Positions 856 to 58,724 of a stretch of 64,000 bases of DNA are shown here, in pieces. Where the stretch lies: assembly GCF_004634385.1 (NCBI RefSeq), contig NZ_CP037895.1, forward strand, positions 2,703,245 through 2,767,244. Direction: 5' to 3'. The position numbers and the translations under genes were made by a program. The notes beneath the pieces were generated by a model. That model saw only the letters and a list, made by a program, of their open reading frames with translations, was not told the origin of the DNA and did not search any database. How positions within the stretch are numbered: the stretch's first letter is position 1; each line of letters begins with the position of its first letter. Source of the DNA: Thermaerobacter sp. FW80. Its GTDB lineage: Bacteria; Bacillota; Sulfobacillia; Thermaerobacterales; Thermaerobacteraceae.

Positions 856-2207
856 CCTCGTGCTCGCTCCTCCTCGGCCCGAGGGTGAATGGGGCCCGGC
901 CGGTCGCGGAGGAACCCGCCCTTCCGGCCGTACCGCACCGCCTGCACCTCCGCCAGCAGGCTGCAGGCGATCTCCTCGGGCGTCTCGCCCCCGGTGTCAA
1001 GCCCCACCGGGGCATGGATCCGGGCCAGTTGTTCTTCCGCCGGCTCGATCCCGCGCCGGCGAAGTTCGTCAAAAAGCCGCTCCGCCCGGTGGCGGGGGCC
1101 CAGAAGGCCAATATACCGCACCGGGCTGTCCAGGACGGCCTCGAGAAAGCCCACGTCCTGCAAGAAGTTGTGGGTCATGATCACCACGAAGGTGCGGTCG
1201 TCCAGGGCGATGTGGCGCCGCAAGTCCTCGGGGTGGGTGTGCACCACCCGCCGTGCGCGGGGGAACCGGTCGTGCCGGGCAAAGGCCGGCCGGCTGTCCG
1301 CCACCACCACGTCGTACCCCAGGGGCGCCGCCGCCTCCACCACGGGCACCGCGTCGTGCCCGGCCCCGCAGACCAGGAGGACCGGTGGCGGCAGCAGGAC
1401 CTCGATGAAGAACTCACCCTCCCCGGGCACGGCCAGGGTGCCCGTGCGGCCGGCGGAAAGCCACTCGCGCGCCGCGGCGGCGCAGTGGGCGTCCCGTTCT
1501 GGCGAGCCCAAAGAGCCCTCGCTGCCGCCGCCCGCCCACACCACCAGCTGCCGGCGGGGGACGAACCGGCCGGCAGCGGCCCCAACCGCGTGCCCGGTTG
1601 CGCGAGCCCCCGTCACCCCATCGTCCGGCCTGCCTTCCATCCTGCCATCCGCCGTCCCGGGCAGCAGAGCTCCCGGGGCAGCGCCGGCACTGGCCCCGGG
1701 AGAGACGCCGTCGTCCTCGTCCGGCCACGCCGTCGCGCAGCCGGCCACCGCCCCGCTCGCGTCCGAACGGCCCGGGGTGCCCGCTGCCGGCTCGGCCCCC
1801 GCCGGGTTCCGGGACTCCAGGGGCGGCAGGGGCACCACCACGGCCAGGCGATGCCCCTGCTCCCGCCAGCGGAGCACCTGCCCGTGCGCGGGCTGGAGCG
1901 GCTCGACCAGCACGTCGACCGCCCCGTTGCAGCCCAGACCCAGGCCCCAGACGGCATCGTCGTCGGCCGTCATATCGTACCCGACCCGCCGGGGTCGCCC
2001 GGTCGCGATGACCTCCGCCGCCACGGCCAAGACGTCGCCCTCGAGGCAGCCGCCGCTCAGGCTGCCCACCGGCTCGCCCGCAGCGGGGATCCACATCCGG
2101 GCCCCTTCCCGCCGGTAGGTGGACCCCCGCGCCCGGGTGATGGTCGCCACCGCACCCGTCCGGCCCTCCTCCAGGGCCGCCAGGATGGCTGCCGTCACCG
2201 CCTCCAT
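852..2207 (-). CDS. XdhC/CoxF-family molybdenum-cofactor maturation protein
   Basis: Members of this family bind and sulfurate molybdenum cofactor and hand it to xanthine dehydrogenase or CO dehydrogenase type enzymes. The N-terminal XdhC domain shows GSTYRREGARMWI and GSLSGGCLEGDVL; the C-terminal Rossmann domain shows LLVCGAGHDAVPVV, VVIMTHNFLQD and YIGLLGPRHRAERL. ATG at 2207 follows a GGGTGG-type ribosome site; an in-frame extension upstream is repetitive and unlike protein. The two domains are separated by about 110 residues of Ala/Gly/Pro-rich low-complexity sequence, making it longer (451 aa) than usual. No hydroxylase subunit genes are in the window. The MoxR-type ATPase next door supports a Cox-type maturation role. 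Confidence 0.85.
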   Translation of the reverse strand: MEAVTAAILAALEEGRTGAVATITRARGSTYRREGARMWIPAAGEPVGSLSGGCLEGDVLAVAAEVIATGRPRRVGYDMTADDDAVWGLGLGCNGAVDVLVEPLQPAHGQVLRWREQGHRLAVVVPLPPLESRNPAGAEPAAGTPGRSDASGAVAGCATAWPDEDDGVSPGASAGAAPGALLPGTADGRMEGRPDDGVTGARATGHAVGAAAGRFVPRRQLVVWAGGGSEGSLGSPERDAHCAAAAREWLSAGRTGTLAVPGEGEFFIEVLLPPPVLLVCGAGHDAVPVVEAAAPLGYDVVVADSRPAFARHDRFPRARRVVHTHPEDLRRHIALDDRTFVVIMTHNFLQDVGFLEAVLDSPVRYIGLLGPRHRAERLFDELRRRGIEPAEEQLARIHAPVGLDTGGETPEEIACSLLAEVQAVRYGRKGGFLRDRPGPIHPRAEEERARG

Positions 2208-2215
2208 GGTTCCAC

Positions 2216-2340
2216 CCCTCTCCCGGACTCTCCCGATCGCCCTCCCGTACTCTCCCGAACTCTCCCGAAATCGCCCGGCCACTCCCGGGCGCTTCCAAAC
2301 TCTCCGAGACTCTACCCGACCATCCCCGGGGCTCTCCCCC
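2216..2340. repeat. Degenerate short repeats in the xdhC-moxR gap
   Basis: The 310-bp gap between the two maturation genes holds many imperfect copies of CTCTCCCGA about 10-11 bases apart (at least six are clear between 2219 and 2275, weaker to 2335). No coding signature is visible. It could be a slipped-strand repeat or a leader of the xdhC transcript; nothing in the sequence decides which. Confidence 0.5.
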
Positions 2341-9550: not shown

Positions 9551-12097
9551 ATGGAGGGTTCGCGTCAGCCGCTGGGCCGCCGTTTCTTGCTGGGCGTCAA
9601 CTACTGGCCGAGTCGCCAGGGCGTGGCGATGTGGGCGCTGTGGGATGCCGACGCCGTGCATCGCGAGCTGCGGGCCCTGGCGGACGCGGGATGCCAGGTG
9701 GTCCGGTTCTTCCTGCGCTGGTCCCACTTCCAGCCCGAGGAGGATCGCGTCGATCCCGTCGCCCTGGAACGGCTGCGGCAGTTCTGCGACCTGGCCCACG
9801 CCGTCGGCCTGGGCGTCATCCCCACCTTCTTCACCGGCCACATGAGCGGCGAGAACTGGGACGTTCCCTGGCGCCAGGGTCGGTGCCCCTACACGGATCC
9901 CGGCATGCTGCGGGCCCAGGTCCGCCTGATCCAGGCGGCGGCCGAGGCCATCGGCGACCATCCGGCCCTGCGGGCGTGGGACCTGGCCAACGAGCCGGAC
10001 ATCTTCGTGCGGCCCCCATCCCCGGACGCCGGGTGGCTGTGGTGCCGGCTCCTGTACCGCGAGCTCAAGGCGCACACGCCCCACGTCCCGGTCACCCTGG
10101 GCATCCACGTCACCTCCCTGGCGGACGACTGCGGCCTCCGCCCGGAGGACATCGCGGATGCCGCCGACTTCGTGTGCATGCACCTCTACCCCATCTACTC
10201 CCCCTGGTGTCCGGACCCCGCGGGCACGGTGCGGCCCAACCTCCTGGTCCCCTTCGGCGACCGGCTCGTGGCAGCCATGGCCCGTCGTCCCGCCCTGGCG
10301 GAGGAGTTCGGCAGCACGACCCTGATGATGTCGCCCACGCTCCACGGCCGCTACGTCAGCGCGGTGCTGGCGAGCCTTCTCCTCCACGGCAGCCTGGGCG
10401 CCCTGGCCTGGTGTGGCCTCGACTTCGCCTGCGCGGAGGAGCTTCCTTACGACAGCACGCCGTACGAGGTGGCCTTCGGAATCCTGGACGCCCAGGGGCG
10501 CCCCAAGCCCGCGGGGGAAGCCTTCGGCCGCTTCGCCCGGTTGCTGCGGCGACTGCCGGACGATCTGACGCCCGCTCCCGGCCCGGCGGCGATCCTGCTG
10601 CCCGAGCGCTACTACGACAACGCCGATCCCGACGTCACGCCGGAGCGCAACTTCGCCGTGCTGTTCAACGCCTTCGTCCTCGCCCGCCGGGCCGGCCTAC
10701 CGGTGGCGCTGGTTCGTCCCGACGACGACTGGACCCCCTACCGGCTCTTGATCCTGCCCTGCGTACCCCGGCGCAACAGTCTCTCCAACCGGACGTGGAA
10801 CCGGTTGCGCCGCTGGGTGGAGGCCGGCGGCACCCTCTACCTCTCCTACGATGGGGCTGCCTTGCCCGGCATGGACGACGTCTTCGGGATCACGGTGCTC
10901 GACGCCCATCCGCGGGAGGCGGTCCACGGACCCGGGCCGTGGGAGCTGCTCCTGCACCCGGCGGCCTGCGATCCCGACGCCCTCCTCGAGCCGGATCCAC
11001 GGGCCGGGGATGCCCGGCCCGTGGCCCGGCTCGTCCCGCCCGCGCGCTCCGCTCCCCGCAAGCGGCTGGTGGCATCGCCCACCGGCGCCCGCGTGCTGGG
11101 GTGGATTCGACCGGTCCGCCCCGGCGGCGACGGCGATGCCGACCGCGACCTCGCGACGTGGGACGAACCGGCGAGTTCGGACGAACCGGCCGTGTTCGTC
11201 CACCGCTACGGTCGGGGGTGGGCGGTGCTGGTCACCGATCCGCTGGAGTGGATCCTGGCATGCATGCCGGGGGCATATGGCGCCGGCCGCGGAACGGGCT
11301 CCGAGACCGGGCGCCCGGCCGACGCCGCGGCAGGGGGCCAGGCGGCATCGGCCTCCCCCGCCGGGGTACCGCGGGCATCGGCGTGGGCGCCGGCACGATC
11401 GACGACGGCCGCCTGGCCGATCGCCACCCCGGCGGCTGGGGTGGCGCCGGCATCGGCGTCGGGGGTCACAGCCGTGCCCCAGGGCGAAGGCGGCGAGGTG
11501 GGGAGCGGCCCCACGTCCCTCCAGCAAGGCGGGGGGGCGTGGGGGAGCGTGAAAGATGCCGAGGGACGGAGCTCCTCCCGTTCGCGGCCCGGGACCGGTC
11601 CCCTGGGGCCCGAGCAGGTCTACCGCTTGGCCGCCGGGCTGGCCGGCATCGTCCCGGAGTGGGAGGCGGACCATCCCGACGTGGAGACGGGGGTGCTGGT
11701 CCCCGGCGCCGTCGACGGTGGGCACCAGGTCGGCGAGTCCAATCCGGCCGGCCCGCTGGCGCCGGGCATCATCCCATCCCCTGGGGGACAGGTGGCGTCC
11801 TCGGCGGTGCCGGATCCATCCGCGGCGCCGGCGGCCCGATACCTGGTGGTGGTCAATCACCGCCCCGAACCGGTGACCGTGACCTTGTCGGGCCGAGGAC
11901 CGGCGGAGCTCATCGACGTCGAGACCGGCAGCGCCCTGGCGTGCCGCCCGACGGGTCCACGGGAACGCGGACGACCGCGCTGGCAGACCCCGCCCTGGCG
12001 GCTGGAGCCCGGGGGGTGGCGGGTGTTCCGCATCGCTGGGGACGCCCTCGATGCGGCTGCCCTCTCCCGTTCGCGAGGCGATGGGGTGCCGTCGTGA
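9551..12097 (+). CDS. Clan GH-A glycoside hydrolase, beta-mannosidase-like
   Basis: The N-terminal TIM barrel opens with FLLGVNYWPSRQGVAMW and has a predicted acid/base Glu148 in DLANEPDIF and nucleophile Glu252 in ALAEEFGSTT. From about residue 375 a second domain resembles the flavodoxin-like trimerisation domain of GH42 and GH164 enzymes (VALVRPDDDWTPYRLLILPC, then WVEAGGTLYLSYDG). No signal peptide, so cytosolic. Its place after a sugar importer and GH130 suggests beta-mannoside cleavage, but GH5 or GH42-like substrates are possible. Residues about 560-720 are a long Ala/Gly/Pro insert. ATG at 9551 follows CGAGGTG by seven bases. The insert carries two copies of GGACGAACCGG (11161 and 11179). 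Confidence 0.75.
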   Translation: MEGSRQPLGRRFLLGVNYWPSRQGVAMWALWDADAVHRELRALADAGCQVVRFFLRWSHFQPEEDRVDPVALERLRQFCDLAHAVGLGVIPTFFTGHMSGENWDVPWRQGRCPYTDPGMLRAQVRLIQAAAEAIGDHPALRAWDLANEPDIFVRPPSPDAGWLWCRLLYRELKAHTPHVPVTLGIHVTSLADDCGLRPEDIADAADFVCMHLYPIYSPWCPDPAGTVRPNLLVPFGDRLVAAMARRPALAEEFGSTTLMMSPTLHGRYVSAVLASLLLHGSLGALAWCGLDFACAEELPYDSTPYEVAFGILDAQGRPKPAGEAFGRFARLLRRLPDDLTPAPGPAAILLPERYYDNADPDVTPERNFAVLFNAFVLARRAGLPVALVRPDDDWTPYRLLILPCVPRRNSLSNRTWNRLRRWVEAGGTLYLSYDGAALPGMDDVFGITVLDAHPREAVHGPGPWELLLHPAACDPDALLEPDPRAGDARPVARLVPPARSAPRKRLVASPTGARVLGWIRPVRPGGDGDADRDLATWDEPASSDEPAVFVHRYGRGWAVLVTDPLEWILACMPGAYGAGRGTGSETGRPADAAAGGQAASASPAGVPRASAWAPARSTTAAWPIATPAAGVAPASASGVTAVPQGEGGEVGSGPTSLQQGGGAWGSVKDAEGRSSSRSRPGTGPLGPEQVYRLAAGLAGIVPEWEADHPDVETGVLVPGAVDGGHQVGESNPAGPLAPGIIPSPGGQVASSAVPDPSAAPAARYLVVVNHRPEPVTVTLSGRGPAELIDVETGSALACRPTGPRERGRPRWQTPPWRLEPGGWRVFRIAGDALDAAALSRSRGDGVPS

Positions 12098-12350: not shown

Positions 12351-13891
12351 CGGCGGGCGCGGGGCCGGTTCGTCCGACGAAGCCGGTGCACGGCCCACGC
12401 CTGCCGCCGCAGCTCCTGGGATAGCTGCACGAGGCTTTCGAGGCTGTGGGCCGGCGCCAGCACGTCGACATACGGGAGCGCAACCTGCATGCCGCGCGCG
12501 AGGGGCTCGTAGCGGGGATCGCCCGCCAGCGGGTTCAGCCAGATCAGGGCCCGCACCCGCCGCCGGCAGGCTCGCAATGCCCGGTCCAGCAGGCCGAGAT
12601 CGCCCCGATCCAGCCCGTCGCTGATCACCAGCAGCACGGTGTCCCGGTCGAGGAGATGGCCATATCGATCCGCCAGCCTCCACAAACCCTCCCCCAGCCG
12701 CGTTCCACCCGACCAGTCCGCGGTGACGGCCGCCGCCCGCGCCATGGCCGCCTCGGGTCGCGGCGTGCGCAGGACCGTGGTCAGGCGGGTGAGTCGCGTC
12801 CCCACGGCGAAGGTCTCGACCCGCCCCCCCTGCTGCTGCAGGCCGTGGAGGAAGTGCAGGAAGAGCTGGCTGTAGACGTCCATGGACCCCGAGACGTCCA
12901 GCACGGCCAGGAGGCGCAGCCGGCCCGCACGCCGCCGCCGGCGCGGCCACTGGAAGAGGTCGCCCGCCTTGCGTGCGGCCTCGCGCAGGGCCCGCCGGCC
13001 GTCGATGGCGCCCTTCCGTGCCCGGACGAACCGGCGCGACGGCCGCGTGGCGAGCCACCGCCCCAGTTGGGAGGCGGCCGCCATCACCAGACGGCGGTCT
13101 TCGTCGTTTAGCAGCTGCACGTCCCGCCGGGTGAGCACCGCGAGGGGGCTGTAACCGCCGGGGCTCCCCCCTGCCCGGGCCTGCCAGGCGCGGCTGCCGT
13201 GGGAGGGACCGTCGGCCTCGACGCCGGTGCCGGCCCCCGCCGACGCGGCCGCGGGAAGCACCGCCAGGATGAGGTGCAAGCCCAGATCCTGCACGCTGTC
13301 GGCACCAGGTGCGCGGGGGTGGTCGGGATCGCCGTCGGTGGCACGGGAGCCGGCGGCCTCGGCCGTCGGTCCCGTCCCATCGTCCGGATGCCCCGCCGGG
13401 TCCCCACCGGCCGGTTCGTCGCCCGCCTCCGCCGCGGAACGGGAGTCGGAACGGGCGTCGGGATGCCCGGGAGACGATCGCGAGGGCGCCGACGCCGCCT
13501 CCGACAGCGGGTCGCGGTCGGGAGGATGGGAGTCGTCCGCGGGATCCCCATGATGGCGGTCCCCCACGGGGTCGGAGGTGGCGGACGTCGCGGCAGGCCG
13601 CCGAGGGGCCAGCCAACCGGGAAGCCGCTGGCGCACCGGATCCCCCCAGAAGAAGGCATCCAGCTCCCGGTCCAGCACAGGGAGGTCTTCAGGCCGCCGG
13701 GCCAGGACGAGGCGCAAGGCCGATCGCACCTCGGCCGGGTCGCCCAGGTCCACGTGCTCCAGAGCTGCCAGCGCGTTCACGGCGTCAGCCGGGCTGGTGG
13801 GGAGCCCCATGGCCCGCAGGCGCCGGACCAGGAGGATCACGTGGTCGCGCAGGTTCTTCGTCGGCGTGTCTTGGCCGTTTGGCGTGTCCAT
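12338..13891 (-). CDS. CoxE-type VWA-domain protein
   Basis: A CoxE-like protein that normally works with a MoxR/CoxD ATPase in metal-centre assembly. The N-terminal helical part begins NLRDHVILLVRRLRAMGLPT; the C-terminal VWA domain carries the MIDAS motif DVSGSM, with LLVISDGLDRGDLGLLDRAL later. Between them, about residues 120-250 are Asp/Ser/Pro/Ala-rich low complexity. ATG at 13891 is preceded by GGAGG; the longer open frame upstream has no family similarity. The probable partner ATPase is at 2518-3405, separated by the sugar cluster, which is unusual as the pair is normally adjacent. Confidence 0.82.
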   Translation of the reverse strand: MDTPNGQDTPTKNLRDHVILLVRRLRAMGLPTSPADAVNALAALEHVDLGDPAEVRSALRLVLARRPEDLPVLDRELDAFFWGDPVRQRLPGWLAPRRPAATSATSDPVGDRHHGDPADDSHPPDRDPLSEAASAPSRSSPGHPDARSDSRSAAEAGDEPAGGDPAGHPDDGTGPTAEAAGSRATDGDPDHPRAPGADSVQDLGLHLILAVLPAAASAGAGTGVEADGPSHGSRAWQARAGGSPGGYSPLAVLTRRDVQLLNDEDRRLVMAAASQLGRWLATRPSRRFVRARKGAIDGRRALREAARKAGDLFQWPRRRRRAGRLRLLAVLDVSGSMDVYSQLFLHFLHGLQQQGGRVETFAVGTRLTRLTTVLRTPRPEAAMARAAAVTADWSGGTRLGEGLWRLADRYGHLLDRDTVLLVISDGLDRGDLGLLDRALRACRRRVRALIWLNPLAGDPRYEPLARGMQVALPYVDVLAPAHSLESLVQLSQELRRQAWAVHRLRRTNRPRARRLPS

Positions 13892-14098: not shown

Positions 14099-16095
14099 GT
14101 TTCAATCCTCACACAGCGCCCGGGCCAGGGCAAGGCGAGGCCGGGATGCTGGCAACCTACCGTCAGCCGGCGGCACCAAGCCTGTCGCCAGGTGCAAGAA
14201 TTCGCGCACGGGACCAAAAACGGTCCATGTCGAGGCGGCCACGGGCGGCAAGTTTCAATCCTCACCCGGCCTTTCGGCCGGGTGTGACGACAGGGCGTCG
14301 TTTATTATTTTCCGGCCCCTGGGCCGCGTTTCAATCCTCACCCGGCCTTTCGGCCGGGTGTGACCCCCTGACGACGCCCGAGATCGAGCAGGCCATCCAG
14401 TTTCAATCCTCACCCGGCCTTTCGGCCGGGTGTGACCCGCCGTATCGCAGCCAGCCCGAGGCGACGGCCGAGTTTCAATCCTTACCCGGCCTTTCGGCCG
14501 GGTGTGACGGCCCGGCAGGAACCCGGTGCGCACACGGCCGCGCGGGTTTCAATCCTCACCCGGCCTTTCGGCCGGGTGCGACCCCCAGCCCCCAAGATCA
14601 CCCGGGCGCGTTCCTCGGGTTTCAATCCTCACCCGGCCTTTCGGCCGGGTGTGACTCGCGGTGCCGATGGAGTACCTTTGGCCGCCGATGCCGTTTCAAT
14701 CCTCACCCGGCCTTTCGGCCGGGTGTGACGGCCGAGGTGGAGCGGTTGTGGCGAATTCTGAGCGTTTCAATCCTCACCCGGCCTTTCGGCCGGGTGTGAC
14801 GTCGCGCGCATTGTGTTGCCCGGGCAGCCCCATTTGGTTTCAATCCTCACCCGGCCTTTCGGCCGGGTGTGACCCGAGACGGTCCTGTTTCAGGCTGCCA
14901 GTTCGGAAGTTTCAATCCTCACCCGGCCTTTCGGCCGGGTGTGACGTTACGGGGGCGGCCGACGTCGCGGGCCCGCTTACGTTTCAATCCTCACCCGGCC
15001 TTTCGGCCGGGTGTGACGTAGCCGCTCATGTCGTCAGGCTCACCGTCCCGAGTTTCAATCCTCACCCGGCCTTTCGGCCGGGTGTGACTTCCTCCCAGCG
15101 GCCCGGACGTGGCGGTCCTGCTGTTTCAATCCTCACCCGGCCTTTCGGCCGGGTGTGACAATCGATCTCGATCAATCGACCGTTCTCGACCCGCCAGTTT
15201 CAATCCTCACCCGGCCTTTCGGCCGGGTGTGACTCGCCGCGTGGGTCTCGAGTGGCGCGGCGGCCCTCGCGTTTCAATCCTCACCCGGCCTTTCGGCCGG
15301 GTGTGACTGCTGGCGCAGTGGCGGATGTGCTAGTATGCTGGTGTTTCAATCCTCACCCGGCCTTTCGGCCGGGTGTGACTCCCAGACCTCGCGGCTGTAG
15401 GCCACGTGGTGCTTGTTTCAATCCTCACCCGGCCTTTCGGCCGGGTGTGACGTCCGGGACCCGGCAAAGGGCAGCAGGGTAAGCGGTTTCAATCCTCACC
15501 CGGCCTTTCGGCCGGGTGTGACGCGCATTGGACTCGTAGGTGTAGAGGGTGACGGGCGTTTCAATCCTCACCCGGCCTTTCGGCCGGGTGTGACTAGGAC
15601 CTCCATGGCTCATGCCCCCTGCCGCTCCAAGTTTCAATCCTCACCCGGCCTTTCGGCCGGGTGTGACGCCCGCGAGAAGCGGCTGAAGCCCTTGCGGCAC
15701 TACCTGTTTCAATCCTCACCCGGCCTTTCGGCCGGGTGTGACCAGCGCCTCCTGCCCGCGGAATGTTGCGGACCAGGTTTCAATCCTCACCCGGCCTTTC
15801 GGCCGGGTGTGACCTTGCCACGCTTGCGGATCATGCCCTCCCCACCCCGTTTCAATCCTCACCCGGCCTTTCGGCCGGGTGTGACCCGAAGCCCTTGGCG
15901 TTGAACACGATGGGGCAGCGGTTTCAATCCTCACCCGGCCTTTCGGCCGGGTGTGACACCTGGTCAAGCTGGTGGGCCACGGCGATCAAGACGTTTCAAT
16001 CCTCACCCGGCCTTTCGGCCGGGTGTGACACTTCTCTCGCTCCCGCGAGCCCGTCATTCCCTCAGCGTTTCAATCCTCACCCGGCCTTTCGGCCG
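14099..16095 (-). CRISPR. Array segment 5 (oldest, leader-distal)
   Basis: It holds 25 intact repeats (first at 14252) plus the upstream part of a 26th that is cut by the IS256-family element. The extreme end at 14099-14112 keeps only the first 14 bases of the repeat. The 139 bases between it and 14252 show no repeat and contain a small GGACC/GGTCC hairpin at 14211-14226. Repeats at 14472 and 14546 carry single substitutions, typical of the decaying end of an array. Confidence 0.95.
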
Positions 16096-18448: not shown

Positions 18449-18558
18449 TGTCATCGCCGGTGTTAAACTGACCCGGGATCGCCGGGTAAGAACTGACCCA
18501 CCCCCCAGCAAAGACACCTTCCGAATCCAGCCACGGAGCGGGAGGTGTCCTCGGCAAC

Positions 18559-20597: not shown

Positions 20598-20664
20598 GTG
20601 ACCCAAAGGGGTGGGTCAGTTTCCAACCGGCGCCAAGTGGGTCACTTCTAGGTCGGCGTTGACA

Positions 20665-37886: not shown

Positions 37887-37993
37887 CGACCACCACCCCC
37901 CAACCGGCACCCCGCGGCTCGCTGTGAGTCGGGCATCTGGCCAGGGCTATTGAACCTGCACCCGGGTCACCGCGATGACCCCATCGCCCCGCT

Positions 37994-39331: not shown

Positions 39332-41248
39332 TCACTGCCCGGGGGCGAACATCAGGCGATAGAGGGCCCGCGCGTAGATGCGGGTGCACCGCATCAGGTC
39401 GTCGATGCTCCAGTGCTCGTCGGGCTCGTGGGCCAGCTCGCGCTGGCCGGGGAACAGCGGGCCGAAGGCGACGCCGTTGCGCAGCACGCGGGCGTAGGTG
39501 CCCCCGCCGATGGCCAGGGGGCGGGCGTCGCGGTCGCCCGTCTCGTCGCGGTACACGGCCAGCAGCTGCTGCACGATCTCGCTGTGCTCCGGCACGTGGT
39601 GGGGCGGCATGTCCTCGCGGGATTCCACCCGCCACCCGCTGTCGGCCAGGGTGGCCGTGAGCCGCTGGAGCAGCTGGGCCGCGGAGGCGGTGACGGGGTA
39701 GCGAACGTTGCAGTCGGCGTAGATCACCGCCCCGCCGCCCCTCGCCCGGGACGACGCGCCCTCGGCCGCCGACGCCTCGGACCCGGGCGCGGGGGACGAG
39801 CCGGCCGCCGCCCGATCGTCCGCGCCCACCAGGCGCACGATCCCCAGGTTGACGGTCAGCGGTCCCGAGACGGCGTCGGTGACGGCGATGCCGAATCCGG
39901 AGCCGTCGGTCCGGGCACCGGCCTCCGCCAGGAATCCGAGGTCGGACGAACGCGGCAGCGCCGGCCCCAGCACCCGCACCAACGCCCCCAGCAGCCCGGC
40001 CACGGCGTTGATGCCCTTCTCCGGGTGCATCGCATGGGCCGCCGCCCCGCGCGCCTCGACCACCAGGCGATCGTCGGCGACCCGCGCCTCGATCCGGGCG
40101 CGCCCCGGTCCGCCGCCATCCTGCAGGCGGCGGGCCAGCTCTTCCAGGGAAGGCGCCCCGGGGCCTGCGACGACCAGCTCGGCCACGGCGTGTTCGGGGA
40201 CCACGTTCACCCGCGTTCCGCCCTCGAGCCGGACCAGCCGGGCCCTCCACCGGGGCCGCGGGGCCGCCCCGGCCCCCGGCCCATCGGCCGCTCCCTCCGC
40301 CTCCCGGCCCGCACGCGGGATGCCGCCACGCCCGCTCTCACCGCCGGCGCCGCTGTCCGTGGCGCCCTCGGCGGCAGGGACGCCGGGGGCTACCCTGGCC
40401 GGGGCTCCCGCCGACGCAGCGCGACCGGAGGCGGCCTCCTCCAGGGCACCAGCCGCCCCGTCGGCCGGTTCGTCCAGGGAATCCGCGCCCCCGCCGGGCA
40501 GCTCCAAGCTCAGCCGGAAGGTCCAGATGCCCTTCTCCGCGTGGACCAGGGGGAACATGGCGTCGGGGCTGAAGCCCAGGGCGGGCTGGGACTCGCGGGC
40601 GAAGTAGTACTTGACGCACTCGAAGCCCGACTCCTCGTTGCCGCCGACCACCAGGCGAGCGCGCCGCGCCGGGCGGCGCCCGGCGGCCAGGGCCAGGTCG
40701 GCCACGGCCTTCATGGCGTACAGGGCGGCCACGGTCGGCCCCTTGTCGTCCACCGCGCCGCGGGCGTAGATCTTGCCGTCGTGGATCTCCGCCGCATAGG
40801 GCGGGTGGGTCCAGCCGCTCCCCTCCGGCACCACGTCCACGTGGGCGAGGATGGCGATCCACTCGTCCCCCTCGCCGATCTCGGCGTCGATGGCGTAGCC
40901 GTCCACGTTGCGGGTGCGGAAGCCCAGGGCCTCCGCCCGGCGGCGGACCCACTCCAGGGCCTCCGCCACGCCGGGCCCGAAAGGCTGACCCGGGGCCGGT
41001 TCGTCCTGCACGCTGCGGATGCGGCAGAGGGCCTGGACGGCCGCCACCATCTCCTGGCGATGGTCCTGGAGCCACCGGTCGAGCTGGGCCACGAAGCGCG
41101 CCTCATCGGCGTCGCGGCCGGCCCCGCCGCCTGGACCGGCGCCGCCTTGGTCCGCGGCGGCGCCTTGCCGGGTGCTGCCCCCGCCCCCGGCATCCTCGCC
41201 GGCCCTGTTGCGATGGTCCTTGGCACGGGTGTCGCCTTCGCCTGCCAC
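39332..41248 (-). CDS. PepV-like M20 family dipeptidase
   Basis: A cytosolic zinc dipeptidase of the PepV group. Metal-site motifs: ILAHVDVVPEGSGWTHPPY (His, Asp), ARGAVDDKGPTVAALYAMK (Asp) and VVGGNEESGFECVKYYF (Glu pair), then a late AIGGGTYARVLRNGVAFGP (His replaced context typical of PepV ends). At 638 aa it is about 170 longer than usual because of two Ala/Gly/Pro inserts, one of about 100 residues after SLELPGGGADSLDEP. It starts at GTG 41248; the first 45 residues are low complexity and the true start may be internal. Confidence 0.85.
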   Translation of the reverse strand: MAGEGDTRAKDHRNRAGEDAGGGGSTRQGAAADQGGAGPGGGAGRDADEARFVAQLDRWLQDHRQEMVAAVQALCRIRSVQDEPAPGQPFGPGVAEALEWVRRRAEALGFRTRNVDGYAIDAEIGEGDEWIAILAHVDVVPEGSGWTHPPYAAEIHDGKIYARGAVDDKGPTVAALYAMKAVADLALAAGRRPARRARLVVGGNEESGFECVKYYFARESQPALGFSPDAMFPLVHAEKGIWTFRLSLELPGGGADSLDEPADGAAGALEEAASGRAASAGAPARVAPGVPAAEGATDSGAGGESGRGGIPRAGREAEGAADGPGAGAAPRPRWRARLVRLEGGTRVNVVPEHAVAELVVAGPGAPSLEELARRLQDGGGPGRARIEARVADDRLVVEARGAAAHAMHPEKGINAVAGLLGALVRVLGPALPRSSDLGFLAEAGARTDGSGFGIAVTDAVSGPLTVNLGIVRLVGADDRAAAGSSPAPGSEASAAEGASSRARGGGAVIYADCNVRYPVTASAAQLLQRLTATLADSGWRVESREDMPPHHVPEHSEIVQQLLAVYRDETGDRDARPLAIGGGTYARVLRNGVAFGPLFPGQRELAHEPDEHWSIDDLMRCTRIYARALYRLMFAPGQ

Positions 41249-44113: not shown

Positions 44114-45484
44114 TTGCAGGTGGAGATCGTGGTGGTCGGCGCAGGCATCGTCGGGCTCGAGGTGGCCTGGCACCTCCGCGAGGCGGGCATTCGGCGCCTG
44201 GCGGTGATCGACCGCGGTGCCGCGGGGCGCGGCGCCACCGCCCACGGCGCCGGCCTGCTCTCCCACTTCACGTGGAACCCGCTGGACGCCCGCCTGGTGC
44301 GGCGGAGCGCCGAACTGTACGCCAGCCAGCAGGCGGAGCTGGGCGGGTCCTTCTTCCGCGTCACGGGATCGTACGTGGTGGTCGGGGCGCCGACGGACCC
44401 GGGGGCTGCCGCAGCCTCGGCCGACGGGGACGGGGAGGGCGCCCGGGTCGGCCCCCGAGATCCCGGCCAGGGCGGCGACGCCGCCCGACAAGCCGCCGGC
44501 GGCGGCCTGCCCCCGACGGGGGCCGTCGGCGATGCCCCCCAGGGCCGCACCGCCCCCGCGACGGAGGAGGTGATCCGGCGCCTCACCAGCCGCGTCGCCA
44601 TGCTCCGCGCGGTCGGGGTCGCCGTGGAGGCGGTGGACCCGGCCGCGGGGATCGCCGCCGTGCCCGCGTGGAACTGGGACGACATCGCGGCTGCCTGGTT
44701 CCTCCCCCACGACGGCGCGTTGCTCCCGGGCGATGGGGCGCAGCTCCTCGCCCGCCGGCTGCGACAGCGGGAGGTCAAGGTCCTGGAGGGCAGCCCGGTG
44801 CGGGAGCTCGCCACCGGGCGCGGGCCCGGCGGCCCGGCGGTGGCCGGCGTCCGCACCGCCGAGGGGCCGGTGGCCGCCGACGTGGTGGTGGTCGCCGCGG
44901 GCGTCTGGACGCGATCGCTGCTGCGGACGGCGGGCCTGGACGCCCCCATCAAGCCCTACCGCACCCAGCTCTCCCTCTGGGCGCTGCCGGAGGGGATCGA
45001 TCCCGACGACGTCCCGCCGCTGCACGACGTGACGGGGGCGTACTACTGGTTGCCCCGCCAGGGCCTGCTGGCGGTGGGCGACGGCACCGGGCTGGTGGAG
45101 GAAGACCCCGACGCCTTCCGCCGCGACCCCGACCCGGAGTTCCTCGAGGCCAGCCGCCGGCGGCTCGAACACCGGATGCCCGCGGCCCGCGGCGCGGAGG
45201 CGGTGGGCGGCTGGGCCCACCTCTGCGACGCCACCCCGGATCGGCGGCCGCTCCTCGGTCCCTACGGGGGCATCGCCGGCTTGCACCTGGCGGTGGGGTT
45301 CAACGGGTTCGGCGTCATGCGGGCGCCGGCCGTGGGCGAGCTGGTGGCCGCGTTTGTCCTGGGGGAGGAACCGGCGCTGGGCGGCGAGCCCGTCGCCGGC
45401 ATCAAGTCGCTGCGGGCGGACCGGTTCGACGGCTTCGTGGACTTCCCCATCGGCCAGGGATTCAATACGGTGGACGCGGACTGA
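44114..45484 (+). CDS. FAD-dependent amino-acid oxidase/dehydrogenase (DAO family)
   Basis: A DadA/glycine-oxidase-like flavoprotein. The N-terminal Rossmann motif VVVGAGIVGLEVAWHLREAG binds FAD; later GHLCD-like WAHLCDATPDRRPLLGPYGG and LHLAVGFNGFGVMRAPAVGE are typical of the C-terminal FAD-contacting part. Oxidises a D-amino acid, sarcosine, glycine or proline-like substrate; which one cannot be told. TTG at 44114 is selected since GAGGAGG lies nine bases upstream and the beta-strand begins at once. About 60 low-complexity residues interrupt the protein near residue 97. It is divergent from an amino-acid importer, suggesting linked use. Confidence 0.82.
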   Translation: MQVEIVVVGAGIVGLEVAWHLREAGIRRLAVIDRGAAGRGATAHGAGLLSHFTWNPLDARLVRRSAELYASQQAELGGSFFRVTGSYVVVGAPTDPGAAAASADGDGEGARVGPRDPGQGGDAARQAAGGGLPPTGAVGDAPQGRTAPATEEVIRRLTSRVAMLRAVGVAVEAVDPAAGIAAVPAWNWDDIAAAWFLPHDGALLPGDGAQLLARRLRQREVKVLEGSPVRELATGRGPGGPAVAGVRTAEGPVAADVVVVAAGVWTRSLLRTAGLDAPIKPYRTQLSLWALPEGIDPDDVPPLHDVTGAYYWLPRQGLLAVGDGTGLVEEDPDAFRRDPDPEFLEASRRRLEHRMPAARGAEAVGGWAHLCDATPDRRPLLGPYGGIAGLHLAVGFNGFGVMRAPAVGELVAAFVLGEEPALGGEPVAGIKSLRADRFDGFVDFPIGQGFNTVDAD

Positions 45485-47974: not shown

Positions 47975-48639
47975 GCGGGCGCGACGATCGCGGCGCGGGC
48001 TCGGGCGACCGCGGTCCAGCGGGCCCGGAGGACCTGGGCGGCCTTGGCGCCGGGAAGCGCCGCCCGCCCGGCGGACCGGTCCGCCGGCGGCGCCGGCTGC
48101 GGCGGTACCGGTTCGTCCCCGTGGACTTCGACACCTTCACGGCGTGGGCGGACCGCATCGTCCGCCGCCTGCCCCCGCGCCTCCTCGAGGAGCTGGAGGG
48201 CGGGGTGCAGATCGACCCCGCGGCGCGGCGCAATCCCCAGGATCCGCCGGGCGTCTACCTGCTGGGCGAGTACATCACCGAGCCGTACCTGGGCCGCTTC
48301 ATCCGCATCTACTACGGGTCCTTCGAGCGGGTGCTGGTGGACGAACCGGCCGAGGTCTGGTTCGACGAACTGGAAGAGACCATCCTCCACGAGCTGCAGC
48401 ACCACATCGAGGCCCTGGCCGGGGTGGACTGGCTGGGGCTCGAGGACCTGCGCCAGCTCCAGCAGCTGTGGGAGGACGCCCGGCGTGGCGCGCGGGAGGC
48501 GGGCGATGGCCCCGCCGCGGCGAACGGCGACGAGGGCGGCGATGGCGGCGTTGGCGGCAGGGATGGACGCGGCGCGGGGCACAGCGGTGGCGGCGGGGAC
48601 GACGTCGGGGAGGACGGCGGCGGGGGCGGCCGCCGATGA
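47971..48639 (+). CDS. Zincin-like metallopeptidase family protein
   Basis: The core (residues about 50-165) has the zinc-peptidase motif HELQHH with His140, Glu141 and His144 in ETILHELQHHIEALAG, preceded by GVYLLGEYITEPYLGRFIRI and YYGSFERVLVDEP. It matches the small Zincin_1 family of unknown substrate. Both ends are Gly/Asp/Arg-rich and probably disordered, the C-terminal 45 residues strongly so. ATG at 47971 overlaps the PLP gene stop. Confidence 0.8.
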   Translation: MSGRDDRGAGSGDRGPAGPEDLGGLGAGKRRPPGGPVRRRRRLRRYRFVPVDFDTFTAWADRIVRRLPPRLLEELEGGVQIDPAARRNPQDPPGVYLLGEYITEPYLGRFIRIYYGSFERVLVDEPAEVWFDELEETILHELQHHIEALAGVDWLGLEDLRQLQQLWEDARRGAREAGDGPAAANGDEGGDGGVGGRDGRGAGHSGGGGDDVGEDGGGGGRR

Positions 48640-48791
48640 GCCGACCGCCGCGATGCGGTCGCCGGCCCGTGGTCCGGCGTGGAGCCGTCGACGGCGCGAC
48701 GGCTCCGCAACGGAGTCGACGGCGCGATGAACGACCCGTGCGCCGACGGGCGCGAGGCGACGCCACGGAGGCGGAGGGGGAGGAGCGGGCG

Positions 48792-49991
48792 GTGAAGGGC
48801 CGTCGAGGACCGCTGGTGGGCATCCGCGTGCTCGACCTCTCGCGGGTGCTGAGCGGACCGTACTGCACGATGATGCTGGCCGACTTCGGCGCCGACGTGA
48901 TCAAGGTCGAGCGGCCCGAGACGGGCGACGACACCCGGGGCTGGGGGCCGCCCTTCATCAACGGCGAGGCGGCCTACTTCCTCGCCGTCAACCGCAACAA
49001 GCGCAGCGTGGTGGTCGACCTGAAGGCACCCGAGGGCCGGGACCTGATCCGGCGCATGGCGCGGCAGTGCGACGTGGTGGTGGAGAACTTCCGCCCGGGC
49101 ACCGCCGCCCGGCTGGGCATCGGCCCCGACGACCTGCTGCGCGAGAACCCGCGGCTGATCTATGCGTCGATCTCCGGATTCGGCCAGGACGGCCCCTACA
49201 GCGACAAGCCGGGCTACGACGCCATCGCCCAGGCCATGGGCGGCATCATGCACGTCACCGGCGAGCCCGACCGGCCGCCGGTGCGGGCCGGCGTGGCCAT
49301 CGCCGACATCGGCGCCGGGATGTGGGCCGCCTTCGGCATCCTGGCCGCCCTGTGGGAGCGGGAGCGCTCCGGCCGCGGCCAGGTGGTGGACGTCTCCCTG
49401 CTGGAAGGCCAGATCGCCTGGCTGACCTACGTCGCCGGCAACTACTTCGCCACCGGCCAGGTCCCGCGCCGCTACGGCTCGGCCCACCCCAACCTGGTGC
49501 CGTACCAGGCCTTCGAGACGGCCGACGGCCACCTGATCGTGGCGGTGGGCAACGACAGCCTCTGGCGGCGCTTCTGCGAGGCGGCGGAACGGCCCGACCT
49601 GGCCGCCGACCCGCGCTACGCCACCAACGCCGGGCGCGTGGAGCACCGGGAGGAGCTCCTGCCGGAGCTCGAGGCCCTGATGCGCAGCCGGACCACCGCC
49701 GAGTGGCTCGAGCGCTTGGACCGGGCCGGGGTGCCGGCGGGTCCCATCCTCAGCATTGCCGACCTGGCCCGCGATCCCCACGTCCAGCACCGGCAGATGA
49801 TCGTGTCCCTGGAGCACTCGCGGGCCGGGGTCATCCGGGTGACGGGCATCCCGGTCAAGCTCTCGACCACCCCGGGCGCCATCTACGCACCCCCGCCCCT
49901 GCTCGGCCAGCACACCGACCAGGTGCTGGAGGAACTCGGCCTGCCGGCCGAGGAGCGCCGGCGGCTGCGGGAGGCGGGGGTCATCGCCTGA
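48792..49991 (+). CDS. CaiB/BaiF family (class III) CoA-transferase
   Basis: A 399-aa class III CoA-transferase that moves CoA between carboxylic acids. N-terminus: RVLDLSRVLSGPYCTMMLAD, FGADVIKVERP; middle: RNKRSVVVDLKAPEGRDLIR, VVENFRPGTAARLGI, ISGFGQDGPYSDKPGYDAIA, and ERSGRGQVVDVSLLE. The substrate is not readable. GTG at 48792 follows GGGGGAGGAGC by about five bases; a much longer open frame upstream runs through the zincin gene and is not real. The 150 bp before it seem non-coding. Confidence 0.92.
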   Translation: MKGRRGPLVGIRVLDLSRVLSGPYCTMMLADFGADVIKVERPETGDDTRGWGPPFINGEAAYFLAVNRNKRSVVVDLKAPEGRDLIRRMARQCDVVVENFRPGTAARLGIGPDDLLRENPRLIYASISGFGQDGPYSDKPGYDAIAQAMGGIMHVTGEPDRPPVRAGVAIADIGAGMWAAFGILAALWERERSGRGQVVDVSLLEGQIAWLTYVAGNYFATGQVPRRYGSAHPNLVPYQAFETADGHLIVAVGNDSLWRRFCEAAERPDLAADPRYATNAGRVEHREELLPELEALMRSRTTAEWLERLDRAGVPAGPILSIADLARDPHVQHRQMIVSLEHSRAGVIRVTGIPVKLSTTPGAIYAPPPLLGQHTDQVLEELGLPAEERRRLREAGVIA

Positions 49992-50021: not shown

Positions 50022-53459
<3,438 letters not shown>

Positions 53460-53617
53460 TTTCCGGCCCGCCGTAGGGCATGGTGGACCCGGACGAACCG
53501 GCCTCGCCCCGAGCCCGCCGGTCTGAACGCGGACACGCCGCCGGGGACGCGAACGCACCGGCGCGATGGAGGCGGGACGGCCCAGACCGATGGACCGCCA
53601 CGGAGGGCAAGCGGCCC

Positions 53618-55648: not shown

Positions 55649-55969
55649 GTGAACACCGAGCCCGCCAAGTGCCACGACCCCGGGTCGCGGCGCATGACGC
55701 CCCACGCCGACCGCAAGAAGCTGCTCGACCGCCTGCGCCGCATCGAGGGACAGGTGCGCGGGCTGCAGCGCATGGTCGAGGAGGAACGGTACTGTGTGGA
55801 CGTGCTGGTCCAGGTGGCGGCGGTACGGGCAGCCCTGGACGCCGTGGCCCTGCAGCTGCTCGAACAGCACACCCACCATTGCGTCCAGGACGCCGTACGC
55901 AGCGGCGATGGCGACGCGGCCATCGACGAGGTCCTGGCCGTGGTGCGGCGCCTCTTGAGGACCACCTGA
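55649..55969 (+). CDS. csoR: Copper-sensing repressor CsoR
   Basis: A 106-aa CsoR/RcnR-family helical repressor. The Cu(I) ligands Cys49, His74 and Cys78 keep the exact family spacing (25 and 4 residues) in [10 protein letters not shown] and [10 protein letters not shown]. The helical start [20 protein letters not shown] is characteristic. GTG at 55649 follows GAGGAGG by nine bases. Copper binding releases it from the dyads at 55478 and 55567 and probably 63710. Confidence 0.95.
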
Positions 55970-56120
55970 CCTGCCAGGCGTCCCGAGGTAGCGTACGCGC
56001 CACGGGCATGCACGCTGACTCCGCTGCCGGAACCCATCCCGGACGGGGCCGGCCGGGTTTCGCGCCCGCAGAGACCCGGATGCCGCCCCGGCCGGACTGC
56101 CGGGCAAGGAGGCATCGCTG

Positions 56121-58724
56121 ATGACGGAAACCCGCGTCCTCGACCGGCCCTCGTCGCCGGAGGCCGGCACCAGGCCGCCGGCCGCCCCGGCCGAGATCAC
56201 CCTGCCCATCGAGGGCATGACCTGTGCCGCCTGTGCAACCCGCATCGAGCGCGGCCTGAAGAAGATGGAAGGCGTGGACGACGCGGCGGTCAACCTGGCC
56301 CTGGGACGCGCGCGGGTCCGGTTCGACCCCCACCGGGTGAGTTTGACCGACATGGCCGGGCGGGTGCGGGATCTGGGGTATGACGTCCCCCTGGAGAGCA
56401 TCCAGCTGGCCGTCACCGGGATGACCTGCGCCGCCTGCGTCAACCGGGTCGAACGGGCCCTGCGCCGGGTCCCCGGCGTGGTCGACGCCGCCGTCAACCT
56501 GGCCACGGGCACGGCCACCGTACGGCTCATCCCCGGGGCGGCGGCGGCCGGCGACCTGACCGCCGCCGTCCAGGCGGCCGGCTACGAAGCCCAGCCCGTA
56601 GGAGAAACCCGCGACGAGGCCGAGGCGGCCCGCCAGCGGGAGATCCGCGGCTGGTGGAACCGGTTCCTGCTGGGCGCGGTGCTGTCCCTGCCCCTGGTGC
56701 TGGCCATGGCGGCCCACCTCTTCGGCTGGCACGGGCCGGCCGCCGCCGTCCTGCAGAACGGCTGGCTCCAGCTGGTCCTGGCCACGCCCGTGCAGTTCTA
56801 CGTGGGCTGGGTCTTCTACCGCGACAGCTACTTCAACCTGAAGAACCGCAACGCCAACATGTCGGTGCTGGTCGCCCTGGGCACCACGGCGGCCTACCTG
56901 TACAGCGTGGTGGCCCTGCTCTGGCCGGGCCTCGGCACCACGGGCCTTTACTTCGAGACCAGCGCCGTCCTCATCACCCTGGTGGCGCTGGGCAAGTACC
57001 TGGAGGCCGTCGCCAAGGGACGCACGTCGGCCGCCATCAAAAAGCTCCTGGGCCTGCAGGCCCGCACGGCCCGGGTGATCCGGGACGGGCGCGAGATGGA
57101 CGTCCCGGTGGAAGACGTGGCCGTGGGCGACGTGGTGGTGGTCCGGCCCGGCGAGAAGATCCCCGTGGACGGGGTGGTGCTGGAGGGCCGCTCGGCGGTG
57201 GACGAGTCGATGCTCACCGGCGAGAGCCTGCCCGTGGAGAAGGGCCCGGGCGATGAAGTGATCGGCGCCACCGTCAACACCACCGGCAGCTTCAAGTTCC
57301 GGGCCACCCGGGTCGGGCGGGACACGGCCCTGGCCCAGATCGTGCGCATCGTGGAGGAGGCCCAGGCCTCCAAGGCGCCCATCCAGGCCTTTGCGGACCG
57401 GGTGTCGGGCGTGTTCGTCCCCGCGGTCATCGCCGTGGCCCTGGTGACCTTCGGCGGCTGGCTCGCGGTGACCGGCGACTTCACCCGCGCTTTGCTGGCC
57501 GCCACCGCGGTGCTGGTCATCGCCTGCCCGTGTGCCCTGGGTCTCGCCACCCCCACGGCGGTCATGGTGGGCACCGGGCGCGGCGCGGAGAACGGCATCC
57601 TCTTCCGCGGCGGCGAGCACCTGGAGGCGGCCGCCACCCTGGACGCCGTCCTGCTGGACAAGACCGGGACCCTCACCGTGGGCAAGCCGTCGGTGACCGA
57701 CGTGGTGGTGCTGGCGCTGCCGGACGGCCTCGAAGCACGAGACGCCGGTCCAGCCGCCGGCCGCGAAGCCGCGAGCGGTGAGGCAGCCCCCGGCCGCGGC
57801 GGGGCCGGGTCGTCCGATCTCGATGCCGCCCAGCGGGCCCTGCTGCGCCTTGTCGCCTCGGTGGAACGGGCCTCCGAACACCCCCTGGCCGCTGCCGTCG
57901 TCGAGCGGGCCCGGGAAGCCGGCCTCGACCTGGACGAACCGGCCGCCTTCGAGGCCGTCCCCGGCCATGGAGTGACGGCGCAGGTGGCCGGCCGCCAGGT
58001 AGCGGTGGGCAACCGGCGGCTCATGGAGGCGCGGGGCGTCGCCGTGGACGCCGCGGCGGACCGGCTGGCGGCCCTGGAGGAACAGGGCAAGACGGTCATG
58101 CTGGTGGCGGTGGACGGCCGCCTGGCGGGCCTCATCGCCGTGGCCGACACCCTCAAGGAGACGGCCCCCGAGGCGGTGGCCGCCTTGCACGAGATGGGCC
58201 TCGAAGTCTGGATGATCACCGGCGACAACGCCCGCACCGCCCGCGCCGTGGCCCGGCAGGCGGGGATCCCCGAAGAGCGCGTCCTGGCCGAGGTGCTGCC
58301 GGCCGACAAGGCCGCCAAGGTACGGGAGCTGCAGGAGCGGGGCCTCAAGGTCGCCATGGTGGGCGACGGGATCAACGACGCCCCCGCCCTGGCGGCGGCC
58401 GACGTGGGCATCGCCATCGGCACGGGGACCGACGTGGCCATCGAGGCGGCCGACGTCACCCTGATGCGGGGCGACCTGCGCACCCTGGCCGCCGCCATCG
58501 ACCTCAGCCGCGCCACCCTGGCCAAGATCCGGCAGAACCTGTTCTGGGCACTGATCTACAACACCCTGGGCATTCCGGTGGCCGCCCTGGGCTATCTCAG
58601 CCCGGTGCTGGCCGGCGCGGCCATGGCCCTGAGCTCCGTCTCGGTGACGACCAACTCCACCCTGCTCAAGCGTTTCGATCCCATGCGGCGCTTCCGCCGC
58701 CAGGAAAGGGGCCGCCCAGCATGA
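56121..58724 (+). CDS. copA: Cu(I)-exporting P-type ATPase CopA
   Basis: An 867-aa P1B-1 ATPase. Two N-terminal HMA domains with CxxC at Cys35/Cys38 and Cys103/Cys106; transmembrane CPC at residues 469-471 in [12 protein letters not shown]; phosphorylation Asp513 in [18 protein letters not shown] and [20 protein letters not shown] in the nucleotide and phosphorylation domains. A low-complexity insert of about 35 residues sits after [19 protein letters not shown] at 56121 follows AAGGAGG. It overlaps the next gene's start by four bases. Confidence 0.96.

What the first reader, a model, noticed from the sequence alone, without database searches (positions are those of the whole stretch)
1559..57942. 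A dispersed 11-12-mer, GGACGAACCGG(C), is strongly over-represented and absent from the CRISPR block
Eleven exact copies occur in 64 kb against roughly 0.1 expected from composition. They lie on both strands. In proteins they read as DEPA (11161, 48339, 57932, and 40465/40996 on the minus strand), RFVP (1559, 48108), RTNRP or RFVRA (12365, 13024), and one lies upstream of a start codon (53491), so selection seems to act on DNA, not on one peptide. Several sit in low-complexity inserts. None was found from 13.1 to 40.4 kb. It may be a Chi-like recombination signal, a chromosome-segregation or uptake sequence, a methylation motif, or the core of a small interspersed repeat that created the inserts.
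Basis: partly seen in the sequence, partly recalled or inferred. Interest (0 to 1): 0.72.

Follow-up and report, generated by a model that had tools for sequence, protein, structure and literature searches.

The report
Candidate DNA-uptake tag in Thermaerobacter
A 12-letter DNA word is scattered hundreds of times through the genomes of a heat-loving Gram-positive-type genus, and it looks like the self-recognition tags that Neisseria and Haemophilus use to choose which DNA to take up, which would be a first outside those groups if experiments confirm it.

Summary
The unit is the 12-mer GGACGAACCGGC, without conserved flanks. It ranks first among over-represented 10-, 11- and 12-mers in sampled DNA of four Thermaerobacter genomes, is weaker in a second genus of the family, and is at background in 96 other relatives. 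Codon usage, coding frame, mobile repeats and replication-strand signals do not explain it. Copies lie in three main reading frames and between genes, show no leading/lagging bias, in well-aligned orthologues arise by substitution in place, and are more conserved than their own flanks. Six strict positions alternate with six tolerant ones. All four genomes carry type IV pilus genes, ComEA, ComEC and DprA. My best reading is a DNA uptake sequence: pilus-bound DNA carrying the word is preferentially imported and recombined, so the word spreads and is kept. A 2025 paper says such tags are known only in Neisseriaceae and Pasteurellaceae. Function is inferred; I found no uptake or transformation data for this genus.

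The parts
1559..1570 (+). exact 12-mer GGACGAACCGGC, antisense in a called gene (RFVP frame)
11161..11172 (+). exact 12-mer, DEPA frame; direct pair with the copy at 11179
11179..11190 (+). exact 12-mer, DEPA frame; second of the direct pair
12364..12375 (-). exact 12-mer, RTNRP frame
13024..13035 (+). exact 12-mer, antisense (RFVR frame)
40464..40475 (-). exact 12-mer, DEPA frame in an M20-type peptidase gene
40995..41006 (-). exact 12-mer, DEPA frame in the same gene; identical in 2 of 3 orthologues, one mismatch at a tolerant position in the third
48107..48118 (-). exact 11-mer with T at position 12; RFVP frame, antisense; identical in 3 of 3 orthologues
48339..48350 (+). exact 12-mer, DEPA frame; 3 substitutions in each of 3 orthologues
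53491..53502 (+). exact 12-mer between called genes; an ORF with ATG at 53480 spans it, so it may lie just inside a gene
57932..57943 (+). exact 12-mer, DEPA frame in a heavy-metal P-type ATPase gene; exact in G003, A at position 12 in G001 and G002
10708..10719 (-). one-mismatch variant at a tolerant position (A at 10)
39794..39805 (+). one-mismatch variant at a tolerant position (G at 7)
45364..45375 (+). one-mismatch variant at a tolerant position (G at 4)
51814..51825 (+). one-mismatch variant (G at 4), first half of an inverted pair
51846..51857 (-). one-mismatch variant (C at 10), second half of the inverted pair
57804..57815 (-). one-mismatch variant at a tolerant position (C at 7)

Best explanation
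GGACGAACCGGC is most likely a DNA uptake sequence of the genus Thermaerobacter. Proposed working: (1) a type IV pilus, most likely through a pilin or the minor-pilin tip complex of the pil locus, binds double-stranded DNA better when it carries the word; (2) PilT-driven retraction brings that DNA to ComEA; (3) ComEC passes one strand in; (4) DprA and RecA recombine it into the chromosome. Fragments that carry the word are imported more often, so by mutation, biased import and recombination the word accumulates in place wherever the sequence tolerates it and is repaired when it decays. Shown here: number, dispersal, strand symmetry, the strict/tolerant pattern, substitution in place among well-aligned orthologues, excess conservation, family-restricted distribution, and presence of genes for steps 1 to 4 (RecA was not searched for). 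Inferred: the binding, the uptake bias, the receptor, and that these genes serve transformation.
For: 577 genome copies, 291/286 by strand, control 8. Counts of 325, 508 and 332 in the three other genomes of the genus, 71 (control 11) in a second genus of the family, and 0-19 in 96 other relatives. First-ranked 10-, 11- and 12-mer, by a z-like score against a fourth-order model, in samples of all four genomes; excess over 60 letter-shuffled control words falls with mismatch load: 241x, 13.5x, 2.6x, 1.4x, 1.1x, 1.05x for 0 to 5 mismatches, inside the control range from 3 on. Substituted forms number 119, 79, 70, 61, 51 and 49 at positions 4, 3, 9, 10, 12 and 7, against 3 to 20 at each of the other six. 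Leading 173, lagging 152, CI 48-59%. Sense 130, antisense 107, in three main frames. Motif identical in 108 of 186 orthologue pairs against 51.8 expected from the same flanks; in comparisons with G000 the flanks at sites are less conserved than random places (0.77-0.79 v 0.83-0.85), as printed for Neisseria (PMC2397512, abstract and passages). In 25 of 27 well-aligned non-conserved orthologue rows the change is substitution only. PilT over its curated cut-off; PilD, PilB/GspE-type ATPase, PilC/GspF-type, a prepilin, a PilM-like protein, ComEA domains and ComEC over its cut-off in the own genome; ComEC and prepilins in all four Thermaerobacter, ComEA domains (SLBB, HHH_3) beside ComEC in all four, DprA in all seven genomes searched. 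A PilB-type ATPase scores E 7e-129 or better in the five motif-bearing genomes and 4e-60 at best in the two same-order genomes without the motif.
Against: I found no transformation or uptake data for this genus: two papers of the library hold both 'Thermaerobacter' and 'competence', and neither looks relevant from its listing. ComEC and prepilins were not found in G004, which bears a relaxed motif; it is a 580-contig assembly, 91% complete. The PilB and PilC proteins score below the curated cut-offs of both the pilus and the type II secretion models, so the names rest on the locus, above all on PilT. Per-position conservation among orthologues (0.82-0.93) follows the strict/tolerant pattern only in part: positions 4 and 7 are lowest, but 9 and 10 are not low. 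Evenness is weak: gaps of 5 kb or more are fewer than random for the tolerant set (52 v 68, p 0.004) but not significantly for exact copies (51 v 58, p 0.10) or for 7.5 kb. Inverted close pairs lie mostly inside genes (17 of 19), not as terminators. Pilus genes have other uses, and any DNA-level function insensitive to orientation would give much of the same genomic pattern. Five genomes with and two without the motif are too few for a correlation with the pilus.
Confidence: 0.6

Rival explanations
1. Binding site of a nucleoid-organising or chromosome-maintenance protein that reads an asymmetric 12-mer in either orientation.
For: Spread along the whole chromosome; conserved above its flanks; strict/tolerant positions as for a protein-binding site.
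Against: Known site families of this kind (parS, Noc sites, matS; recalled) are palindromic and region-bound; here density is near flat from origin to terminus, 19.0 to 14.7 per 100 kb in three genomes, and the word is not a palindrome. It does not explain the restriction to one family with a pilus locus.
Confidence: 0.14
2. Chi-like recombination signal for an AddAB or AdnAB-type nuclease.
For: Non-palindromic, dispersed, near the spacing of known Chi sites (recalled).
Against: Chi acts in one orientation (PMC5443536, passages), and known Chi sites favour the leading strand (recalled); here 173 v 152, and 79 v 79 in the own genome. A 12-mer with six strict positions is longer than known Chi words (recalled).
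Confidence: 0.08
3. Self-marker read by a defence system, or another unknown DNA-level function that keeps the word.
For: Genus-wide conservation and absence from the CRISPR block.
Against: No candidate system was sought in detail; nothing seen links the word to defence genes.
Confidence: 0.1
4. Methylation-linked word like the cyanobacterial HIP1.
For: HIP1-type words are also dispersed in huge numbers (PMC4390886, passages).
Against: HIP1 is palindromic and tied to methyltransferases; this word is not palindromic and is absent from the T. composti Ins1 methylome, which reports one other motif (PMC11008173, whole text). That strain is not known to be one of the genomes studied here.
Confidence: 0.03
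5. Small interspersed repeat, or a product of codon and peptide preference.
For: 25 of 150 orthologue rows have gaps in the word, nearly all in poorly aligned flanks; close pairs occur.
Against: No flank conservation; substitution only in 25 of 27 well-aligned rows; codon usage predicts 4.6 of the 68 motif-coded DEPA; three main frames on both strands plus intergenic copies.
Confidence: 0.03

Closest known systems
DNA uptake sequence (DUS) of Neisseriaceae, read by the minor pilin ComP
   Same: 12-mer; hundreds to thousands of copies; no orientation bias; conserved above its flanks; strict core with tolerant positions; related words in sister genera; type IV pilus with transformation genes (PMC3630211, PMC2397512, PMC1939737, passages).
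   Different: Unrelated sequence; GC-rich Gram-positive-type Firmicute rather than a proteobacterium; a ComP relative was not sought by sequence; inverted pairs mostly in genes rather than terminators; uptake not shown.
Uptake signal sequence (USS) of Pasteurellaceae
   Same: Dispersed, orientation-free; accumulation by mutation plus uptake bias is proposed in print (PMC1939737, passages); copies biased to gene ends (PMC2346458, first of three parts read; here the last fifth of genes holds 64 of 223 copies, p 0.011).
   Different: 9-10-mer core with AT-rich flanking tracts (recalled); here no flank signal.
HIP1 of cyanobacteria
   Same: Huge over-representation of one dispersed word (PMC4390886, passages).
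   Different: HIP1 is a palindrome tied to methyltransferases; this is not a palindrome.
Chi sites
   Same: Non-palindromic dispersed word.
   Different: No replication-strand bias here; longer word (recalled).

Membership tests
DNA uptake sequence (DUS/USS class) | Short (about 9-12 nt) word enriched far above expectation and dispersed over the chromosome | tested here: met
   577 v 8 control; first-ranked word in samples of four genomes
DNA uptake sequence (DUS/USS class) | Both orientations equal, no bias relative to replication | tested here: met
   291/286; 173/152, p 0.27; origin and terminus placed from GC skew and synteny, not from dnaA
DNA uptake sequence (DUS/USS class) | Word more conserved than its flanks, differing by substitution rather than transposition | tested here: met
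   108 of 186 v 51.8 expected; 25 of 27 well-aligned rows substitution only
DNA uptake sequence (DUS/USS class) | Singly mismatched forms also enriched, with strict and tolerant positions | tested here: met
DNA uptake sequence (DUS/USS class) | Related dialects in sister genera | tested here: inconclusive
   G004 relaxed at position 10 (G33 C19 A8 T4 of 64, counted by hand) and 12 (C in 33 of 71); dialect and decay cannot be told apart
DNA uptake sequence (DUS/USS class) | Close inverted pairs, often acting as terminators | tested here: inconclusive
   Pairs under 25 bp in excess, 17 v 6; 19 of 25 pairs within 60 bp inverted, but 17 of these 19 inside called genes
DNA uptake sequence (DUS/USS class) | Depletion in recently acquired DNA | tested here: inconclusive
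   0 copies in the CRISPR/IS block v 5.2 expected, but copies also fall with GC generally
DNA uptake sequence (DUS/USS class) | Type IV pilus and ComEA/ComEC/DprA transformation genes | tested here: met
   four of four Thermaerobacter; PilB and PilC names rest on the locus; not complete in G004
DNA uptake sequence (DUS/USS class) | Preferential binding, uptake and transformation of DNA with the word | not testable with these tools
   needs cells or purified pili
Chi site | Leading-strand orientation bias | tested here: not met
   173/152, p 0.27
KOPS / SpoIIIE recognition sequences | Strong skew toward one strand per replichore | tested here: not met
HIP1-type methyltransferase word | Palindrome | tested here: not met
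   the sequence shows it directly; no palindromic extension in the flanks
HIP1-type methyltransferase word | Methylated in vivo | not testable with these tools
   the one congener methylome found lists another motif
Interspersed mobile repeat | Conserved flanks or clean insertion against orthologues | tested here: not met
parS / Noc / matS sites | Palindromic and confined to a chromosome region (recalled) | tested here: not met
   not a palindrome; near-flat origin-to-terminus density

The most novel reading that the evidence does not exclude
A third, independent evolution of sequence-specific DNA uptake, in a thermophilic Gram-positive-type Firmicute: the type IV pilus of Thermaerobacter reads GGACGAACCGGC on environmental DNA, so members recombine mainly with kin, and the relaxed form of the word in a sister genus is a dialect or its decay. 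The receptor is one of the pilin-like proteins of the pil locus.
Probability: 0.55. Interest if true: 0.92.

Novelty: new variant of a known kind. Interest (0 to 1): 0.82.

Why it matters
Uptake sequences are the clearest case of bacteria choosing DNA by a genomic tag, and a 2025 paper states that only Neisseriaceae and Pasteurellaceae are known to do so (PMC12616744, passage). A third origin, in a distant phylum and presumably without an outer membrane to cross, would turn a two-point comparison into a test of how such tags evolve: selection for kin DNA against pure uptake drive. It would also make pilus-DNA recognition testable in heat-stable proteins, and explain a strong genome-wide pattern in this genus that my searches of open PubMed Central papers did not find described (one search listed 10 of 74).

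Tried and rejected
Codon or peptide preference: rejected by frame spread and codon-usage expectation. Mobile repeat or insertion: rejected by flank profile and orthologue alignments; 41 of 68 non-identical orthologue rows (of 150) were dropped as poorly aligned (flank identity under 0.75), and some of those show gaps at the word, so a minority of insertions cannot be excluded. Chi/KOPS: no strand bias. Terminator role: inverted pairs are mostly inside called genes, and intergenic copies are fewer per base between convergent genes than between tandem ones. Intergenic enrichment: only slight by my own simple gene caller (95 of 332 copies v 23.4% of bases, p 0.027); that caller gives 77% coding where 84.8% is published for T. 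marianensis, so this number is weak. Receptor hunt: the first pilin models well (mean pLDDT 82.6), but its best solved-structure match is a Shewanella type IV pilin at E 6e-3, which says pilin and no more; the third pilin model is weak (71.9) and was not searched. A named-relative search with the SNF2 gene gave no Thermaerobacter among the 80 loci kept; the genus was instead fixed by the exact length of G002 contig 1, 2,844,696 bp, equal to the published T. marianensis chromosome. No species name is claimed for the window.

Literature limits: searches cover only open-licence PubMed Central papers, and I saw listings except where passages or whole texts are named.


Full report
Observation. The eleven copies are real; ten of them extend to the 12-mer GGACGAACCGGC. 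In the whole genome the 11-mer occurs 577 times, 291 forward and 286 reverse, against 8 for the word read backwards. In 829 kb of sampled own DNA (20 kb stretches spread over the chromosome plus the window) the 12-mer occurs 143 times against 1.2 to 2.4 under third- and fourth-order Markov models; even a fifth-order model, which the word itself inflates, gives 10.4. By a z-like score against a fourth-order model it ranks first among the commonest 10-, 11- and 12-mers of each of the four genomes sampled, CRISPR block left out for the own genome; by plain ratio a rarer repeat of the own genome (20-21 copies) ranks higher.

Whose genome. The window is G000:C1:2703245-2767244 of a 3.04 Mb genome. 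G002 of the same genus has one contig of 2,844,696 bp, exactly the published Thermaerobacter marianensis chromosome (PMC3035304, passages). The genus is therefore Thermaerobacter; the species of the window was not determined.

Distribution. Of 101 genomes searched, the word stands far above control in the four of the genus (577, 325, 508, 332) and clearly in one genome of a second genus of the family (71 v 11). In the other 96 it occurs 0 to 19 times, in the range of the control. In that second genus (G004) the wider pattern GGNNGAACNNGC is also enriched, 581 v 216, with position 10 relaxed (G 33, C 19, A 8, T 4 of 64, counted by hand) and C at position 12 in 33 of 71 copies. This is either a dialect or decay.

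Anatomy. Flanks carry no signal beyond the twelfth base and a weak C after it. Pooled over four genomes, single-substitution forms number 119, 79, 70, 61, 51 and 49 at positions 4, 3, 9, 10, 12 and 7, against 3 to 20 at each of positions 1, 2, 5, 6, 8 and 11. The excess over 60 letter-shuffled control words falls smoothly with mismatches: 241, 13.5, 2.6, 1.4, 1.1 and 1.05-fold for 0 to 5, within the control range from three mismatches on. This is what a protein-binding word under mutation and continual renewal would show.

Strand, place and frame. Leading-strand copies number 173 and lagging 152 (p 0.27, 95% CI 48-59%), and 79 to 79 in the own genome. Origin and terminus were placed from GC skew and synteny, not from dnaA; seven copies of G001 were left unassigned. 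Density from origin to terminus is near flat, 19.0, 16.3, 19.5, 16.3, 14.7 per 100 kb in three genomes. Within called genes 130 are sense and 107 antisense; 220 of the 237 are in three frames, reading DEP(A), RFV and (A)GSS; 95 of 332 copies are intergenic. Codon usage predicts 4.6 motif-coded DEPA where 68 of 105 are found, and 0.3 motif-coded AGSS where 38 of 73 are found. Copies are more frequent in the last fifth of genes (64 of 223, p 0.011). For the tolerant set (up to one substitution at a tolerant position) gaps of 5 kb or more are fewer than random, 52 v 68, p 0.004, and pairs under 25 bp are in excess, 17 v 6; for exact copies the gap result is 51 v 58, p 0.10, and gaps of 7.5 kb or more do not differ. 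Of 25 pairs within 60 bp, 19 are inverted, 17 of them inside called genes.

Evolution. In orthologue alignments the word is identical in 108 of 186 site-genome pairs against 51.8 expected from 11-mers in the same flanks; with the own genome as query, 22 of 60 against 10.1. Pairs are not independent, since one site counts against several genomes and in both directions, and the stretches include eight chosen around pilus and com genes. Flanks at sites are less conserved than random aligned places in the comparisons with G000 (0.77-0.79 v 0.83-0.85), but not among G001-G003. Neisserial DUS are likewise highly conserved in permissive surroundings (PMC2397512, abstract and passages). Conservation by position (0.82 to 0.93) is lowest at 7 and 4 but not low at 9 and 10, so it follows the strict/tolerant pattern only in part. 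In an earlier run on fewer loci, 68 of 150 rows were not identical; 41 were dropped as poorly aligned and, of the 27 kept, 25 differ by substitution only and 2 include gaps.

Machinery. The own genome has, at C1:1675438-1687198, PilT (over NCBIfam's cut-off), a prepilin peptidase, a PilB/GspE-type ATPase with MshEN domain, a PilC/GspF-type protein, a prepilin with a GFTLIE cleavage motif, two further pilin-like proteins without family matches (in relatives they carry prepilin-like motifs), a larger protein that I take for a PilX-like capping pilin from its start alone, a PilM-like protein below the cut-off, and two genes in PilN/PilO position. The PilB and PilC proteins fall below the curated cut-offs of pilus and type II secretion models alike, so PilT is the main argument for a pilus. 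ComEA (SLBB plus helix-hairpin-helix) and ComEC lie at C1:653057-657256. ComEC and prepilin hits occur in all four Thermaerobacter, ComEA domains beside ComEC in all four, and DprA in all seven genomes searched. A PilB-type ATPase scores 7e-129 or better in the five motif-bearing genomes and no better than 4e-60 in the two same-order genomes without the word. ComEC and prepilins were not found in G004. No secretin gene was seen among the genes called at the pil locus; it was not searched for genome-wide. The first pilin modelled at pLDDT 82.6 with one long helix and four strands and is closest to a Shewanella type IV pilin, weakly.

Reading. A non-palindromic word with no orientation preference, spread over the whole chromosome, differing between relatives by substitution, conserved above its surroundings, tolerated in genes in several frames, and confined to one family that has pilus genes, matches the uptake sequences of Neisseriaceae and Pasteurellaceae on most features I could test. 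For those, lack of orientation bias and accumulation by mutation plus uptake bias are in print (PMC1939737, passages). A replication, repair or segregation signal should show strand polarity; Chi acts in one orientation (PMC5443536, passages). The rivals I cannot exclude are an orientation-blind chromosome protein or an unknown self-marker.

Known or new. [quoted passage not shown] The word itself occurs in three papers of the library, on fly or human cells by their titles and abstracts. Searches for Thermaerobacter with genome (10 of 74 listed) or competence (both listed) and for uptake sequences in Firmicutes and Gram-positives (listings) showed no report of it. Monoderm competence pili have been studied for DNA binding in Streptococcus (PMC12040237, passages). 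The methylome of T. composti Ins1 has one methylated motif, unrelated to this word (PMC11008173, whole text).

Verdict. Observation confirmed and strengthened; function inferred at about 0.6 for an uptake sequence; new variant of a known kind if so.

Noticed in passing
window 14252-30002: A very large CRISPR array region: 122 repeats above Rfam's threshold (RF01322), broken by IS elements (Mutator-family transposases, an IS21-type pair), with Csd1 and Cas3 genes nearby (33187-37910), which I recall as marks of type I-C..
   Followed up: partly
window 21026-22255 and 27634-28863: Two Mutator-family transposase genes with 409 of 409 identical residues inside the CRISPR block, so probably recent insertions..
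   Followed up: partly
L265:5215-6516 (G001): Group II intron-type reverse transcriptase/maturase gene between a gene that looks like leucyl-tRNA synthetase and the comEA-comEC pair..
   Followed up: no
L259:5096-6385 (own genome, C1 about 650 kb): IS605 OrfB/TnpB-type gene (with a Cas12f1-like TNB domain match) next to the gene that follows comEC..
   Followed up: no
own genome sample (G000): A second over-represented 12-mer group around ACCGTGGCTACG / CGTGGCTACGTT (21 and 20 copies, 0.13 and 0.04 expected) in the sample without the CRISPR block; probably part of a longer repeat, not examined..
   Followed up: no
G002:C1:1899242-1900467 and 2101242-2102414: The CoA-transferase family III gene of the window (48738-49991) has two places 94% identical to it in T. 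marianensis, pointing to a second copy there..
   Followed up: no
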